Shown here piece after piece: positions 44,335 through 58,797 of a stretch of DNA of 64,000 nt. The stretch comes from Phascolomyces articulosus. Lineage: Eukaryota; Mucoromycota; Mucoromycetes; Mucorales; Lichtheimiaceae. The stretch covers positions 868,001-932,000 of the forward strand of contig JAIXMP010000018.1 of assembly GCA_025677815.1 (NCBI GenBank). The letters are read 5' to 3'. The translations under genes and the position numbers were made by a program. A model generated the notes under the pieces. That model saw only the letters and a list, made by a program, of their open reading frames with translations. It was not told the DNA's origin and searched no databases. The first letter of the stretch is position 1. Each line of letters starts with the position of its first letter.

Positions 44335-45061
44335 TTGTTCAAACTATTAAGACAACATAATACAGTGTTTAGTTAAAATGTATAATGTATTTGAACCATT
44401 ATCCAACGATTAAGTTAAATCTTATTAAGTTCATCAGTGGACAACAAAAGAATATTGTTTATAGCATCCCAATTATTCCCAAAATCAGCTTTTTTCGTAA
44501 CCATTGTTATAAATCATCAGGCACACGTAAATAAGAAATATCTATACTTCAAAGAGTATTATACTTATTGCGAAGCATAAAATGCATGGTGTATTATTCT
44601 TTTTAGAAAATACCTTTTTGACTTGTAGGATCGTAAGTGTCATGCTTCCAACTAAATGTAAATCTTATCTGACCAAGAGCACCATGTTACTTTGCAACGT
44701 GTATTTTAGCATGACAACCAACTTCGATAGATTTCTCAACAATACGTTTTTTTTTTGTTTTGTTTTTTTTTTTTTTTGCTTGTGGGCTAGATTTGTTCAA
44801 GAGTGAACGATTACAGTAAAAGTCGCATGCTCAGTCTAATTATCTTGGACTTAATTTAGATGATGATGACGACCGAGAGGATGCTTTTGAAAAATATTCG
44901 CGTTGACGATGCCGAGATGCTTTAGTATAATACCATTTTTCTGTATTAAAAGAAGTTCAGGGAGGTGAGTCAGGTGGAACTGCGCGATAAATTTAGGGGC
45001 TTTCTCAACTAACTGGACACCTTATTGGTGATAAGATGTGACCTGATGACTAATATTGAAA

Positions 45062-45080
45062 CGTGAATCGTTCTGATTGG
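45062..45080 (-). promoter_or_regulatory. ERSE-like element upstream of HAC1
   Basis: Read on the minus strand this is CCAAT, nine bases, TCACG. The mammalian ER stress response element is CCAAT-N9-CCACG, so spacing is exact and one base differs. It lies about 140 bp before the HAC1 start codon. ERSE use in fungi is not established; CCAAT alone could bind the HAP/NF-Y complex. Confidence 0.35.
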
Positions 45081-45148
45081 ATGTGAAAATATTCAAATAT
45101 TCTCTCCCCAGCGAGCTTCGCAGGTTTTTTTTTTCTTTATTCGACGAT

Positions 45149-45169
45149 TTCTCTCCATTAGGTGGTGGT
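45149..45169 (+). promoter_or_regulatory. HAC1: HAC1 5'-leader segment complementary to the HAC1 intron
   Basis: These 21 bases (starting TTCTCTCCATTAGG, ending GGTGGT) are the exact reverse complement of 45936-45956 inside the unconventional intron. They end 51 bases before the start codon, so they are probably in the 5' leader. In budding yeast HAC1, leader-intron pairing of similar length stalls translation of unspliced mRNA; the same role is inferred here. That the leader extends this far is assumed, not shown. Confidence 0.75.
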
Positions 45170-45219
45170 AACCTTAAAAACAAAAAGAAATCCCAAAAGC
45201 GTTTATTGTTTTAAAAAAC

Positions 45220-46249
45220 ATGATCTCAAACCAACAACACCAACAACAATCTTTGACACCCAATGTCAATGTTGAAGCACTCTTGTCGTCTTTCTCGGGT
45301 GACTTTGCAGTGAATCCTCTGGTAACGGTCACTTGCCCTAGTGGTATCAGCAGCAATAGCAATATTTGCAGCAACAGCAACAACAACAACAACAACAGCA
45401 ACAGCAACAATAAAAGTCCTAAGCGAGTTGTACAGATCAAAAAATCTCGACTTTCCTTGGACGATAAAGACCAAAAGACTAAAGAAAGGTTTGTATATTA
45501 ATTCTCACTATATTTATCCTCAATTTACTGAAAGGAATCTTTGAAACTCATTATCCGTTTTTTCTTCATTTTATAGAATCCTGCGGAACAGAGCAGCGGC
45601 TCAAGAGTCAAGGGATAAGAAGCGTCGCTATGTCGCTGATTTAGAAACAAATAATAAACGACTACAAGAAGAAAATGAACGAGTGTCGAAACGTGCCAAG
45701 ACTTTGGAAATTCAAAATGAAATTTTGAGTGCTCAACTCCTTGTCCTGAGCCAACGTCTTGCAAAATTGACTGATTCATCTTCCCTCATGGTTGATGGCT
45801 TTTGCGATTCAGCACGGATCGCGAAGAGGATACTATTATGCGTAACCCGTGGTTTTCCAGTCTATTGATCTCGTTTTATCTATCATGTTGAATATGTTCA
45901 TCCTTTGAAACATCGTCGTCTCACCCACCACCACCACCACCACCTAATGGAGAGAACGAGAACGATTCTTCATTTCTTACGATAAAACGATTTTTTTATT
46001 CAAGTATCGATATCGAGCATGGAACAACTTTTTTTATTACACAGTAATGTACCTTTCCCTGCAGCGGAGGCTGTCAAACTTGAAGGACTTGAAGCACCTC
46101 AACTTTTGCCTTCACCAATGTTATCATCCGTGTCTTCCAACGATGATGTCCAGTTAGATGATTTATTTTTTGACTGGGAAGGTTTGCAACATGTCCCAGA
46201 ACAACAATGTTTACAATATATTTCAAGTCCACAAAACCAACAACAATAA
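45220..46249 (+). CDS. HAC1: HAC1/XBP1-type bZIP transcription factor of the unfolded protein response, with IRE1-type intron
   Basis: bZIP activator of ER-stress genes. Spliceosomal exons 45220-45488 and 45577 onward are joined at KTKE-RILRNRAAAQESRDKK (basic region NxxAAxxSR, about residues 90-115), followed by a leucine-zipper-like helix (YVADLETNNKRLQEENERV, AQLLVLSQRLAKL). Unspliced mRNA ends at 45868 (186 aa; an 18-residue tail ARIAKRILLC to GFPVY). Removing 45813-46061, bounded by two 7-nt-loop hairpins, joins codon 169 in frame to a new C-terminus (AAEAVKLEGLEAPQLLPSPM, acidic DDVQLDDLFFDWEGL) and stop at 46247-46249: 693 nt, 230 aa. The acidic/aromatic tail looks like an activation domain. 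The N-terminus has Asn/Ser runs. This matches HAC1/HacA/XBP1 logic; IRE1 cleavage itself is inferred. Confidence 0.85.
45801..45825 (+). promoter_or_regulatory. HAC1: HAC1 5' IRE1-type cleavage hairpin
   Basis: TTTGCGATT (45801-45809) pairs with GATCGCGAA (45817-45825), nine pairs with two G-U wobbles, around the 7-nt loop CAGCACG. Cleavage after the loop G at 45812 gives CAG^CAC. The IRE1 loop consensus, from memory, is CNG^CNGN; this loop fits except for C at position 6. Cutting here is the choice that preserves frame with the 3' site. Confidence 0.7.
45813..46061 (+). other. HAC1: Unconventional (IRE1-type) HAC1 intron, 249 nt
   Basis: The interval has no GT-AG borders (it begins CACGG and ends CCCTG) but lies between two 7-nt-loop hairpins. 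Its removal is frame-exact. Its length is close to the 252 nt I recall for budding-yeast HAC1 and far from the roughly 20-26 nt of filamentous ascomycetes and animals. It contains a (CCA)n run and the leader-complementary segment 45936-45956. Confidence 0.75.
45936..45956 (+). promoter_or_regulatory. HAC1: Intron segment complementary to HAC1 5' leader
   Basis: Starts ACCACCACC and ends GGAGAGAA; it pairs without mismatch over 21 bases with 45149-45169. Splicing at 45812/46061 would remove it, relieving any translational block. Confidence 0.75.
46054..46070 (+). promoter_or_regulatory. HAC1: HAC1 3' IRE1-type cleavage hairpin
   Basis: TTTCC (46054-46058) pairs with GGAGG (46066-46070), including two G-U pairs, around the loop CTGCAGC (46059-46065). 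This loop is the same as I recall for the 3' site of animal XBP1, cut as CUG^CAGC, here after 46061. Confidence 0.75.
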
Positions 46250-47678
46250 TCATCTTTAATCTTTTTTCTTCTTTTTTCTTTTATGATATCGTTTTAACCC
46301 ATATTCTATGTCCATTCTATCTTTTCTCATATATGCATTTGTTTCTTTTTCCCCTTATTATACTCTTTACTTTTTATTTCTTTTTGGCTTTAATAAACGC
46401 AGTTCTCTTTTTACATCATTAAAAAATATGGGTTGTTCAATGGGTATTGGTTGTAATGATGGGGCAAAGTGATAAATATGGTACAAGAACAAATATGTCG
46501 CATGTGCTTGCTGCGACTTCCTCAAAACCACATGAGCCATTTTTCTAGATTTAACCATGAATTGCGTTTTAGATGAATTGTATTAGATCCCAAAAATAGA
46601 TGTTTTGTCTCTGGTAATGACAGTGATTGTAGCTACGTGTTGATTGTATTATCAAACACGTACATTTTTTCTACTGGCTAAGCCCTTTATTTGCATAATT
46701 CAGGCACATAAAACACGAATTCGGGTCAAATAAAAACCTGCTCGGTTAATGATATACAAAATGGCCCAGACGAATTATATTATATATTTGGATTATATAC
46801 CATTGAATTTTTGTATAATGCTAAAAGTATAATAGGTGAATACACGAACTTTTCTTTTGAGGAGAGGGAGGGAGAAAAAGCAGAAGAGAAAATAACAATA
46901 GCTTATGAGAGGAAGTTTTTTTAATAAGAAAAAGCAATAATAATAGAGATACATATAATTTTTGATTATCATGATATAAGAGCGGATATATAGGTTTAGG
47001 AAGAGTATCATGTTTAAAGTCTTTTTTTGTTATGGTTGGTATACAGTATTGGATTGCTATTAAAATGATGAGAGAGATGATAGAAATATAACAATGACAC
47101 AATTTTGGAGAATTCTATATAAACAAGAATAGTATCATTAATATATCACTGCAATATAACCATATATATATATATATATATATATAATATAATTGAAGGG
47201 ATTCTCTCTCTATGTTTTGATTACTGGGATAATGTTTATAGAAATATATTTGCGCCATTGCAAATATAAAGTTAACCTAGAGAACTACTGGAATAATTGG
47301 ATCACCATTATTCAGGAGATTTCGAATATTCACTATGAAATATATAAAACAACCACCATCCATAGAATCTCTTTAGTGTTCATAGAGTGTACACTTCTCT
47401 ATTTTCTGTGACATATATTTATATACATACTATCTCTAAAGTCAATTTTTCGTCCTGAAGATGTAACAAAGATGTGCCGTTTTCTTTTTTCCATGGTTGC
47501 AAAGTCTGTGTAATGTTGTTTTCGAATATGAGCGTAGTGATTGTAACTTTTTCTAAGAGTTACATGATGGCAACCTTTATACGGGCAATAAAAGAGTTCT
47601 GCTACAGCTGGAATTGAAAAGTAGTGTCTGTAAACCTGTTTCTTAAAATTATCCGTTCTTGTTCTTTTCCATTGATTG
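46250..47678. other. HAC1 3' region and intergenic DNA
   Basis: 1.4 kb of AT-rich DNA. HAC1 3' UTR-like pyrimidine-rich sequence with AATAAA near 46392 comes first, then a (TA)n tract at about 47162-47187. The word AAAACACGAATTCG near 46711 also occurs in the MITE-like element at 22 kb. No gene seen. Confidence 0.45.
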
Positions 47679-49704
47679 TCACTTTTTTTTAATAGAAACT
47701 TGATTAATTTCTATACCTGTCGAATTCTGGGTCTTATTTCTCTTCGGGTTGGGTGTCAATGAACTTTTGTTGATGCTAATAGGTAGCTGGAGTTGTTTTT
47801 CTGGATATGGGTGCTTTGTTTTTACAGCGATAAAATTATCATCATCTTCAAATGGATCCTTCCTCATTTTTTCAGCCATTAAAACAAATTCCTTCTTTTT
47901 TGTTCTTTCGAGCAATATTTTTTCCATCATTAAATCCCTTTTTCGTAATTCAAGCGTATCACTTTCTTCCAATGTGTTGCGTGATGCCTCTATTATTAAC
48001 CATAAAAAATATAGATGGATGGAAAAACGTGTTAGAGAGAGTATGGGTTGTCATCACCAACGTGAGAATAAATGTCAAAAAAGAAAAAGAATATGTATAC
48101 TGACTCGTAAATGATATTTCATTCCCTGAACGAGAAGAAAAATAGCCAAAACCTCCTCTTCGCATACTTGTTTTAATCTTGGGATCATGAGTACTTCTAA
48201 TATGGGCAACAATACTAGATCGGTGATATCGATCCAAAACATCACAACCTCTGTATGGACAAAAGAATAACGCTATATATATAAATGGCAGAGACATATA
48301 AATCCATGTCAACTTAGATTGAGTATATATGAATGACGCAAAGCAAAAAGTAGGATCTGATAGACACGAAAAAAGTATCACTTCTCTTCCTTTCCACCTC
48401 TTAGAATTTTTATTTTACCTTGATTTTTGATCTTTATACTCTCAGTATTATCGTTGCCATCATCATATTCGTACTCTTCGTATAAATCCTCTGAAGAAGG
48501 CTCTACAATTATATACATCAATGACACGATTTTGAGTGAATTTCATAATAATCAATATATTATGTCATAGTGTAATCAACATATATATTAGTAAAAGAGA
48601 GGGAAGGCATACCTTTCATCACCATAGGGCGAACTTGTCTTCCAGATCGAGTGATATAAATATCTTTCGACATTGCGGTTGTTGTTGAAGAGGAAGTTGT
48701 ACTCATGTTTTCATCAAGTTCTTCATCATCATCTTCCATCAGTTGCATTGGATTGTCATAGGTAGGGTGCATGGTACGACGCTTTGTGTCTCGTTCCGAA
48801 CCATCAGTATCTGGATTGCATTTTTTTATTTGTTTCAAAGTGATTTGCAATCAATCAATCAATCAATATATATGTATATTCATGCACAAATAAAAAGAAT
48901 TGAACGAACAAATAGAAGTATACCTTGACTATTATGACTATTACTGTTTTCATTGTTATGATTGTGATCATTTGAATATTTACGTTTCAAAGGTGCAAAA
49001 CCTGTTTTTAATAATAAAATAGATTCAAAAATATAAATATTCATCATTCGATTATTATTTTTTTCGTGGGTAATCAATCAAAACAAGATAGTTTACCAAC
49101 AGTCATGGCACTTCCTAATCTTTTAGCAATATATCGACGTTTTCTCGTTGATGTATTGTTTGTTACTAAAGCAGAATTGTTTTTCATAGGATAAGTTGGG
49201 GTGATAGGCCCAATATCAGAATCTTCTTTCGTCAAGTCTATAATGGGACATATACTGTTTTTTTTGACAGTTCGATAGGTTATTGTTGTTCCTTCTACTA
49301 CGGTTGTGGTCTCATTATGATTATAGCGTTTCTTTTGAATTTGATTTCCATTAGACAAATCATTGACATGGATTTTCTTTTGAACAGTTAACATGGTTGA
49401 ACCTAACAATGTTTTTAAAAAAAGTTACACTTGGAAAAGAATAAAAAAAAGTGTGGCCGGAACCAACTGTTTCCGTTTCATATTATCCATATTATCATAT
49501 ACCACACCATTTTTTTTTTTACAAAACCGCATAATTTGTGGTACCTATTCTAGTAGTGGTATCCGCAGCAAGTGATAAAAGAGGGTGATCATCGTGTAAA
49601 CGAGTTTCTACTGATGGATGATGATCATTAGTATCACTATGAGAGAGTGAACCATCTTCATCCAAAATGGTTTTTTTAAATCGTTCCCAAATAGAAGAAA
49701 ACAT
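47679..49704 (-). CDS. C2H2-type zinc-finger protein with SUMO-interacting motif, uncharacterised
   Basis: Seven inferred exons: 49704-49545, 49402-49097, 49001-48924, 48810-48613, 48502-48419, 48272-48105 and 47989-47679 (1305 nt, 434 aa); exon ends may shift by a base or two. It begins MFSSIWERFKKTILDED. Two readable features: CPIIDLTKEDSD (about residue 110), a textbook SUMO-interacting motif with flanking acids; and CPYRGCDVLDRYHRSSIVAH ending IRSTH, a C-x4-C...H-x4-H zinc finger (about residues 280-305). ITRSGRQVRP is a basic motif between them. The C-terminal part is Lys/Glu-rich helix (KRDLMMEKILLERTKKKEF). Likely nuclear; no family name recognised. All six introns are phase 1. Confidence 0.65.
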
Positions 49705-56447: not shown

Positions 56448-57226
56448 TTAGTTTCCCGAACCAGCCTTGTAAGTCTTGATAACGTTACCAAAGTTCTTGC
56501 CTTGGGTTTGAGCAATTTCCAATTCCTTTTCAGAGGGTTGGCGGGAACCATCTCCGTTAGTGACAGTACCAGCACCATAAGCAGAGCCACCAATGACTTC
56601 GCTGTTATCAAAGAGATGAGCGTTGGCGAAACCGAAAGGAACGTAGATGATACCGTGATGAGCAAAGTAAGTGACGGTAGTAAAAGCAGTGGTTTCTTGA
56701 CCACCGTGTTGACTGGCAGTAGAGAAGAAAGTACCAGCAAATTTGCCAGCCAAAGCACCAGAGGACCAGAGACCACCAGTAGCATCCAAGAAGGACTTAA
56801 TCTATAATGCGTAACACAAATTTATAAGTATTTTAAAGTAAAAAAAAAAAAGGTCATAAGAATACAAAGTGTTTTACCTGAGCGGGCATGGTACCGAAAC
56901 GAGTGGGGATACCGAACAAGAAACCATCAGCTTCCTTCAAGTCATCAACAGTGATGACGGGAACATCAGGCTTAGGTGGGGCATGAAGCTTTTCGAGAAG
57001 TTCTTCGGACAAAGTTTCAGGAACTAAAAAAAAATGCAAAGAAATCATTTCATTAGATAAAGAGTCATCGAATAAAAAAAAAGCGTTTCTATGATGTATA
57101 AACATAATTACCTTGGAAGATCTTGGCTTCAACACCAGAGGCTTCAAGACCCTTTTGGACTTCAAGAGCCAACTTGTAAATGTGGTGGTACATAGTGTAG
57201 ATGATGATATAAACCTTAGCAGCCAT
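56448..57226 (-). CDS. WrbA/Pst2-like flavodoxin-fold NAD(P)H quinone reductase, copy A
   Basis: Likely FMN-binding, two-electron quinone reductase of the WrbA/Pst2/Obr1 family, protecting against redox-cycling quinones. Three exons: 57226-57112, 57023-56878, 56801-56448 (615 nt, 204 aa, family-typical). Start [20 protein letters not shown] (phosphate-binding segment; family TxSMYGHI appears as YTMYHHI). Then [45 protein letters not shown] and a C-terminal helix [11 protein letters not shown]. Codon use is strongly biased (GCC, ATC, AAG), pointing to high expression. Divergent from its paralogue at 57627. Confidence 0.9.
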
Positions 57227-57626: not shown

Positions 57627-58797
57627 ATGCCCAAAGTATTCATTATCTTTTATTCCCTTTATTATCATGTCTATACTCTTGCACAACATGTGCAAAAAGG
57701 TCTCGAATCACAAGGTATTGAAGTTGAACTCTATCAGGTAAGAATAATAATTATATAGTCTTTATTGTTATTTGATATCAACCAATGACAATCATGATGT
57801 ACTAACAAGTAGTTAATATTAAAAAGGTACCTGAGACTTTAGATGACGCGATTCTTGAAAAAATGCACGCACCTGCCAAGCCTGATGTTCCAGTGATCAC
57901 TGTCGATAAACTAAAGGAAGCTGATGGCTTTTTGTTTGGCTTACCCACAAGGTATTTGTTGAATGAATGAATGAAAATAAAAACAAAATCAGCGAGGTAT
58001 AATCATATACTGATAATCATGATGGTTTATAAAAACATAATAGATTTGGTATTTTCCCCTCTCAAGTGAGTTTAATAATTTTACTGTTTTATTTATATTA
58101 TAAAATAAACTTGCTTTACATAATGCAATGATCCTAATAAAATAAAAACTTTTATAGTTTAAGTCCTTCTTGGATGCTACTGGTGGTCTCTGGTCCTCTG
58201 GTGCTTTGGCTGGCAAATTTGCTGGTACTTTCTTCTCTACTGCCAGTCAACACGGTGGCCAAGAAACCACAGCATTGACCGCTGTTACTTATTTCGCTCA
58301 TCATGGTATCAACTATGTTCCCTTTGGTTTCGCCAATGCTCATCTTTTTGATAACAGTGAAGTGGTTGGTGGTTCAGCTTATGGTGCGGGTACAGTTGGT
58401 AAGTAACTAAATAGGGGGTGTTATTTGTTGGGTAAACTATACAAAATCAGGCGGGAACAACAACACGGAGAGAGAATTATTCTGGACCCTTTTGACTCAA
58501 CAATTTTTTTTATGCGTGGACTCTTTTTACACAGCAAATGGTGATGGATCACGTCAACCTTCTCAAAAGGAACTCGAAATTGCAGTGACCCAAGGTGAAA
58601 ATTTCGGTAAATTACTGGTAACTTTCCATCGTGGTCAATCCAAATTAGCATCAACTGAAAATGGCGCTGCAAAGAAACAAGAAATTGTAAAGCCTGATGC
58701 TACTCCTGCAACCAATGGTGATGCTTCAAAGAAGCGTGAAGTCAAGTCTACTCCCAAGAAGCAAGAAGAATCCAAGAACAAGTGCTTCTGCATGTAA
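57627..58797 (+). CDS. WrbA/Pst2-like flavodoxin-fold quinone reductase, copy B, with Lys-rich tail ending CFCM
   Basis: Paralogue of the divergent neighbour. Five exons: 57627-57737, 57827-57951, 58044-58065 (22 nt), 58158-58398, 58535-58797 (762 nt, 253 aa). Core motifs: [70 protein letters not shown]. Unlike copy A it has a C-terminal extension of about 45 residues, Lys/Glu/Ser/Thr-rich, ending NKCFCM. The last four residues fit a CaaX box (prenylation) with a second Cys that could be palmitoylated, and a basic stretch precedes it, so membrane attachment is likely. Yeast Ycp4/Rfs1-type members are also lipid-modified, from memory. Codon bias is weaker than copy A. Confidence 0.88.

What the first reader, a model, noticed from the sequence alone, without database searches (positions are those of the whole stretch)
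45149..45956. Perfect 21-bp complementarity between HAC1 leader and its unconventional intron
Bases 45149-45169, 51 nt before the HAC1 ATG, are the exact reverse complement of 45936-45956 within the IRE1-type intron. In budding yeast (established), HAC1 leader-intron pairing blocks translation until IRE1 removes the intron. Finding the same architecture with unrelated sequence in what looks like an early-diverging fungus suggests that translational attenuation of HAC1 is ancient or evolved more than once. A 21-nt perfect match between these two specific segments by chance is very unlikely.
Basis: partly seen in the sequence, partly recalled or inferred. Interest (0 to 1): 0.95.

Follow-up and report, generated by a model that had tools for sequence, protein, structure and literature searches.

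The report
Leader-intron RNA lock on fungal HAC1
In a mould far removed from baker's yeast, the stress-response gene HAC1 carries a 21-letter stretch in its leader that is the exact partner of a stretch in its stress-removed intron, which probably keeps the messenger silent until stress cuts the intron out, a trick known from baker's yeast.

Summary
In detail: 45149-45169 is the exact reverse complement of 45936-45956, and this 21-mer was found nowhere else in the 47.4-Mb genome at up to 2 mismatches. The gene is the HAC1 orthologue of Phascolomyces articulosus (Mucorales): its unspliced product equals that species' deposited protein. Removing a 249-nt Ire1-type intron (45813-46061) gives a 230-aa frame. 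Ire1-like kinase and RNase exons and a Trl1-type ligase domain are in the genome. The unspliced mRNA folds with the arms paired (mean probability 0.98); duplex energy -38.8 kcal/mol. In 5000 dinucleotide shuffles the longest run is 15. No DNA of relatives could be reached, but gene models that misread non-coding parts give one-sided traces: the intron arm in Apophysomyces (PPPNG), the leader arm in an Umbelopsis-like and, weakly, a Dichotomocladium-like sequence. Their joint score is reached by 1 of 3000 genome 21-mers, though they were picked after looking. Best reading: translational attenuation by leader-intron pairing, as in S. cerevisiae, in another phylum. Transcription start, pairing in vivo and repression are untested.

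The parts
45149..45169 (+). leader arm, 21 nt, -71 to -51 from the ATG
   Evidence: exact reverse complement of 45936-45956; pairs with it in the predicted fold of the unspliced mRNA for each of six assumed starts from 44961 to 45145
45936..45956 (+). intron arm, 21 nt, positions 124-144 of the 249-nt Ire1-type intron
   Evidence: the motif CCNCCNCCNAAYGG is also readable from the Apophysomyces ossiformis gene model P0023
45220..45488 (+). HAC1 coding exon 1
   Evidence: identical to P0001 of Phascolomyces articulosus
45489..45576 (+). ordinary spliceosomal intron, GT...AG, 88 nt, within the bZIP-coding part
   Evidence: removal gives the deposited P0001 protein
45577..45812 (+). HAC1 coding exon 2 (most of the bZIP region, up to the 5' Ire1 site)
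   Evidence: Pfam PF00170/PF07716
45813..46061 (+). Ire1-type (unconventional) intron, 249 nt; the unspliced frame stops within it, giving 186 aa
   Evidence: removal joins DSA-AEAVK in frame; a like junction DSAAEV appears in the Mucor lusitanicus model P0015 and in P0024
46062..46249 (+). HAC1 coding exon 3, read only after Ire1 splicing; spliced product 230 aa
45800..45826 (+). 5' Ire1-site hairpin, loop CAG|CACG
   Evidence: (MFE -12.6 kcal/mol for 45796-45829); it lies in the peptide SAR[IV][AV], found in 66 of 132 fetched proteins
46054..46070 (+). 3' Ire1-site hairpin, loop CTG|CAGC
   Evidence: loop matches CxG|CxGx; stem weak, -1.4 kcal/mol, and not the MFE of the fragment 46042-46080

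Best explanation
This is a leader-intron translational attenuator of HAC1. In the unspliced cytoplasmic mRNA the leader segment -71 to -51 pairs with the middle of the Ire1-type intron. The 21-bp duplex closes a large loop holding exons 1 and 2 and stands between the cap and the AUG, so that initiation complexes cannot form or scan. When ER stress activates Ire1, the intron with one strand of the duplex is cut out, exons are joined by the Trl1-type ligase, the leader is freed, and the 230-aa activator is made. Shown here: the sequence match, the gene structure, the predicted fold, and genes for Ire1 and the ligase. Inferred: that the arm lies in the mature leader, that the duplex forms in cells, and that it represses translation.
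For: 21/21 match, found at these two places only in the genome. Arms pair with mean probability 0.98 (lowest pair about 0.70) in the whole unspliced mRNA, and about 54% of the leader arm is unpaired once the intron is removed. Duplex -38.8 kcal/mol, the program pairing 20 of the 21, against -25.15 printed for the S. cerevisiae duplex by another program. Leader x intron energy reached by 1 of 1000 dinucleotide shuffles; longest run in 5000 shuffles is 15. Geometry close to S. cerevisiae: intron 249 against 252 nt; intron arm starts at position 124 against about 103; leader arm -71 to -51 against -38 to -20. Traces in relatives: Apophysomyces intron peptide PPPNG (23 of 5000 peptide shuffles score as high), Umbelopsis-like leader LGGG (84 of 5000), Dichotomocladium-like leader LHWV (334 of 5000 over 51 residues, 218 of 5000 over the last 20). 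Joint score over five sequences, the two non-matching leaders included, reached by 1 of 3000 genome 21-mers, 0 of 776 with similar GC, 0 of 3000 letter shuffles of the arm; singly, genome 21-mers reach the three scores in 0, 4 and 249 of 3000.
Against: No transcript data: the start site is unknown. A donor-like GGTGAGT at 44965 and acceptor-like AGs at 45111, 45123 and 45161 exist; use of 45161 would cut the arm in two. The traces are one-sided and were found after looking; the one in P0043 is weak alone. Two other leaders (P0073, P0011) show no such motif in the 9 and 13 codons visible (2261 and 586 of 5000 shuffles as high). Of 54 other tails after the 5' site, none matches as well as P0023 (18.5); the best is 11.8 (P0038), near P0043's 12.1, so scores of that size mean little; most of these tails are short and end well before the place of the arm in the window. 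Real genome DNA holds other perfect inverted repeats that need no such function. The 5' loop departs from CxG|CxGx at one place and the 3' stem is weak.
Confidence: 0.75

Rival explanations
1. A recent inverted duplication (for example by template switching) copied 21 nt of the intron into the leader or the reverse, with no function; the match is perfect because it is young.
For: Perfect identity with abrupt ends and little flanking similarity; other perfect inverted repeats exist in this genome.
Against: Falls in the two segments of the mRNA that pair in yeast HAC1; traces of each arm in other Mucoromycotina; not a repeat family.
Confidence: 0.13
2. The duplex forms but acts chiefly on something else: presenting the two Ire1 hairpins to Ire1, targeting the mRNA to Ire1 clusters, or controlling mRNA stability rather than translation.
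For: The intron arm lies between the two Ire1 sites and would shape the intron; in yeast the intron structure is said to help in targeting the mRNA to Ire1 clusters (passage read).
Against: A leader partner is not needed for intron presentation; the leader position is best explained by a block to initiation, the mechanism favoured by later yeast work (passages read).
Confidence: 0.08
3. The leader copy is not in the mature mRNA (downstream start or a leader intron ending at 45161), so no pairing occurs; 'CTCTCCATTAG' would be a 3' splice site.
For: Pyrimidine-rich tract before ATTAG at 45161 and a good donor-like site at 44965.
Against: Earlier AGs at 45111 and 45123 lie closer to the branch-like CTGAT at 45073; in P0043 the place of TAG reads TGG (W), and in P0076 probably TTG GGN if its non-ATG start is TTG or CTG, so this AG is not kept there.
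Confidence: 0.04

Closest known systems
S. cerevisiae HAC1 5'-UTR-intron attenuator (Ruegsegger 2001, known here through citing papers; details from passages of PMC8881652 and PMC5114014)
   Same: HAC1 orthologue, about 250-nt Ire1 intron, complementary segments in the leader before the AUG and in the intron, parted by splicing.
   Different: Sequence not compared by alignment, thought to be unrelated; 21 perfect pairs instead of 15 predicted pairs over 19-20 nt; arm 50 nt instead of about 19 nt before the AUG; Mucoromycota, not Saccharomycotina; no experiment.
Predicted K. lactis and Hansenula polymorpha HAC1 leader-intron pairings (passages of PMC6116095 and PMC10608004)
   Same: Long Ire1 intron (297 and 177 nt) with a segment complementary to the leader, predicted attenuation.
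   Different: Yeasts; not compared by sequence here.
hacA/hac1 of filamentous ascomycetes (passages of PMC4488935, PMC10608004, PMC11508391)
   Same: Ire1-spliced bZIP regulator whose translation is thought to be held back in the absence of stress.
   Different: Introns of about 20 nt, held too short for such pairing; the leader itself is shortened under stress.
Cryptococcus HXL1 (passage of PMC6116095)
   Same: Ire1-spliced bZIP regulator outside Ascomycota.
   Different: Reported to seem to lack intron sequence complementary to the leader.

Membership tests
HAC1 leader-intron translational attenuator | gene is the HAC1/XBP1-type bZIP target of Ire1 | tested here: met
   bZIP domain; best match in the genome, two others weak; identical to a Mucorales protein and similar to a protein named 'bZIP transcription factor HacA' of Rhizophagus. 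Ire1 cleavage itself was not tested
HAC1 leader-intron translational attenuator | Ire1-type intron bounded by hairpins with CxG|CxGx loops | tested here: inconclusive
   3' loop CTG|CAGC fits but stem weak; 5' loop CAG|CACG in a strong stem departs at the sixth place; frame and models P0015, P0024 support the junction
HAC1 leader-intron translational attenuator | Ire1 kinase-RNase and Trl1-type ligase in the same organism | tested here: met
   Pkinase and Ribonuc_2-5A exons side by side in L006; RNA_lig_T4_1 at C84. PF08302 (CPD domain) gave nothing, with silent controls
HAC1 leader-intron translational attenuator | long intron with a segment complementary to the leader | tested here: met
   249 nt, 21-nt perfect match, beyond shuffles
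HAC1 leader-intron translational attenuator | the complementary leader segment is in the mature mRNA | not testable with these tools
   no transcript data; splice-like signals listed
HAC1 leader-intron translational attenuator | pairing conserved in relatives, with compensatory changes | tested here: inconclusive
   one arm each in P0023, P0043, P0076; never both in one relative
HAC1 leader-intron translational attenuator | unspliced mRNA is not translated until Ire1 removes the intron | not testable with these tools
   needs reporter or polysome data
HAC1 leader-intron translational attenuator | bipartite element in the 3' UTR that targets the mRNA to Ire1 (yeast) | not tested
   mentioned in the passages; not searched here

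The most novel reading that the evidence does not exclude
Leader-intron attenuation of HAC1 is an old, lineage-wide device of Mucoromycotina: a core like CCATTRGGTGG in the leader and CCACCNCCNAAYGG in the intron kept since before Mucorales and Umbelopsidales split, arisen independently of the yeast pairing or inherited from a common fungal ancestor and drifted in sequence.
Probability: 0.45. Interest if true: 0.78.

Novelty: new member of a known kind. Interest (0 to 1): 0.66.

Why it matters
In the passages I read, leader-intron pairing of HAC1 is treated as a feature of yeasts with long introns. A strong example in Mucoromycota would mean that silencing a standing pool of unspliced HAC1 mRNA is either ancestral in fungi and lost where introns became short, or evolved more than once to the same geometry. 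[quoted passage not shown]

Tried and rejected
Rfam at E up to 1 over 44900-46500 gave only two sub-threshold matches, taken as chance, and no HAC1 intron family. Viral contigs: 39 stretches matched a pattern, none encodes a relative of HAC1; no match to the 5'-site pattern. Genome contigs: 15 matches to that pattern, all in records titled as bacteria, taken as chance and not examined. A search with the translated Apophysomyces intron found only itself. PF08302 in the own genome: none, controls silent too. A paralogous HAC1 with its own pair of arms was sought: only two weak matches (E 2.9e-5 and 6.2e-4) besides HAC1, presumably other bZIP genes, not examined. Terminal inverted repeats of a mobile element were considered and rejected: the 21-mer was found at these two places only. 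Literature searches whose listings showed no title on leader-intron pairing of HAC1 in Mucoromycota: 20 of 38 papers listed; 25 of 47; 11 of 11; 30 of 70; 15 of 240; 15 of 1066; 10 of 17; 10 of 12. I saw titles and beginnings of abstracts, in an open-licence library only, so absence from print is not shown. Passages only (word finds) were seen of PMC8881652, PMC6222058, PMC6116095, PMC2905327, PMC5114014, PMC4488935, PMC4891664, PMC11508391 and PMC10608004; no paper was read whole. Hooks and Griffiths-Jones 2011 is not held and is known to me only through citing papers.

Full report
What is there. The window lies in a 47.4-Mb assembly of 110 contigs. The gene at 45220-46249 encodes a bZIP factor; removing one spliceosomal intron (45489-45576) gives an 186-aa unspliced product that is letter for letter the deposited Phascolomyces articulosus protein P0001 (compared by eye). 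P. articulosus is in Lichtheimiaceae, Mucorales. Removing a further 249 nt (45813-46061) between the loops CAG|CACG and CTG|CAGC changes the C-terminus and gives 230 aa. A like junction (DSA-AEV) is present in models of Mucor lusitanicus (P0015) and Hesseltinella (P0024), and the peptide SAR[IV][AV] at the 5' site is in 66 of the 132 proteins fetched (the other 66 were not sorted one by one and include distant, partial and spliced models). The genome has neighbouring protein kinase and Ribonuc_2-5A exons, as in Ire1, and an RNA_lig_T4_1 domain as in Trl1; the CPD domain PF08302 gave no match, with silent controls. So the HAC1 pathway is present in outline.

The match. 45149-45169 and 45936-45956 are exact reverse complements. 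The 21-mer with up to 2 mismatches was found at these two places only in the whole genome; the backwards control nowhere. The longest complementary run in 5000 dinucleotide shuffles of a 100-nt leader and the intron is 15; the duplex energy of leader and intron, -44.4 kcal/mol, is reached by 1 of 1000 shuffles. Nine bases are a GGT/CCA repeat; the rest is complex, and with the repeat masked a 12-nt run is left. In 264 kb of real sequence (the window and 20 stretches of one contig), 32 of 40000 random pairs of the same size and spacing reach 21, all from a TA repeat and one 29-bp inverted-repeat pair; of 39 listed perfect inverted repeats of at least 21 nt, registers counted apart, four are complex, and the other three are 29, 71 and 100 nt long. 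The 100-bp one lies in two inverted paralogous genes. Thus chance is very unlikely, but duplication as an origin is not excluded.

What it would do. In the fold of the whole unspliced mRNA (spliceosomal intron removed) the arms pair with mean probability 0.98 for six assumed starts between 44961 and 45145; the leader arm is 2% unpaired before and 54-56% unpaired after removal of the intron. In S. cerevisiae a 19-nt leader segment pairs with the intron and blocks initiation until Ire1 splices (passages of PMC8881652, and PMC5114014). The layout here is the same in kind and similar in measure: intron 249 against 252 nt, intron arm near the middle, leader arm upstream of the AUG, and a longer, perfect duplex.

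Relatives. No relative's DNA was reachable. Protein models that read non-coding sequence served instead. P0023 (Apophysomyces ossiformis) runs through the Ire1 intron in another frame: from the 5' site to the 3' site it encodes 51 residues (155 nt if nothing was removed by the annotators), with PPPNG, i.e. CCNCCNCCNAAYGG, just past the middle; the window's arm reads CCACCACCTAATGG. P0076, a metagenome protein that by eye resembles Umbelopsis isabellina P0071 and has a non-ATG start, has LGGGIKFI before the conserved Met, i.e. (taking the start as TTG or CTG) TTG or CTG, then GGN GGN GGN, against TTAGGTGGTGGT in the window. P0043, by eye close to P0085 and to Dichotomocladium elegans P0095 (Dichotomocladium in Lichtheimiaceae is recalled), has an N-terminal extension ending LHWVGT before the conserved Met, i.e. 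YTN CAY TGG GTN GGN ACN, against CTCCATTAGGTGGTGGTAACC. Peptide shuffles reach these scores in 23, 84 and 334 of 5000 (218 of 5000 for the last 20 residues of P0043). Two further leaders that can be read, P0073 and P0011, show nothing (2261 and 586 of 5000). Of 54 other tails after the 5' site the best score is 11.8 (P0038), well under P0023's 18.5 but close to P0043's 12.1, so P0043 alone proves little. The sum over all five is reached by 1 of 3000 genome 21-mers, 0 of 776 of similar GC and 0 of 3000 letter shuffles of the arm; singly, genome 21-mers reach the scores of P0023, P0076 and P0043 in 0, 4 and 249 of 3000. These sequences were picked out after scanning 132 proteins by eye and pattern, so the figures overstate the case somewhat. 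That three sequences hit the same core argues for a real element; P0043 has G where the window has A in ATTAGG, and P0076 probably too.

Weak points. The start of transcription is unknown. A donor-like site at 44965 and AGs at 45111, 45123 and 45161 leave room for a leader intron; only use of 45161 would harm the arm, and that AG is not kept in P0043 and probably not in P0076. The 5' loop departs from the consensus printed in PMC8881652 in one place; the 3' stem is weak. Repression itself is inferred.

Verdict. A HAC1 leader-intron attenuator in Mucorales is the best reading (0.75). It is a new member of a known kind, of interest because the descriptions that I could read place it in yeasts only (passages) and because relatives can settle whether it is ancient.

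Noticed in passing
44965-45123: Possible leader intron: GGTGAGT donor at 44965, CTGAT at 45073, TTCTCTCCCCAG ending at 45111. If real, transcription starts further upstream and three upstream ATGs (45036, 45046, 45081) would be removed.
   Followed up: partly
56701-56800 and 58159-58258: 100-bp perfect inverted repeat inside two paralogous frames in opposite orientation; the peptide ([19 protein letters not shown]...) resembles WrbA/Pst2-type quinone reductases (recalled, not searched); recent duplication or gene conversion likely.
   Followed up: partly
L036:947-975 and 1767-1795: 29-bp perfect inverted-repeat pair about 850 bp end to end, perhaps a small mobile element; no clear target-site duplication seen in the 8 bases on each side.
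   Followed up: partly
P0005, P0011, P0012, P0016, P0017, P0018, P0020, P0054, P0056, P0077: Unspliced HAC1 models of other Mucorales or metagenome relatives end in (M/V/L)C, mostly followed by I or V, then stop, which hints at a different conserved nucleotide element near the start of their Ire1 introns.
   Followed up: no
47399-48414 (minus strand): Two stop-to-stop frames with similar F(Y/F)CPY(K/R)GC...H segments that look like repeated zinc-finger-like sequences downstream of HAC1.
   Followed up: no
L043 (G000:C84:14724-15581): Trl1-type ligase domain match with 4 in-frame TAA, probably introns; the CPD domain PF08302 was not found in the genome, with silent controls.
   Followed up: partly
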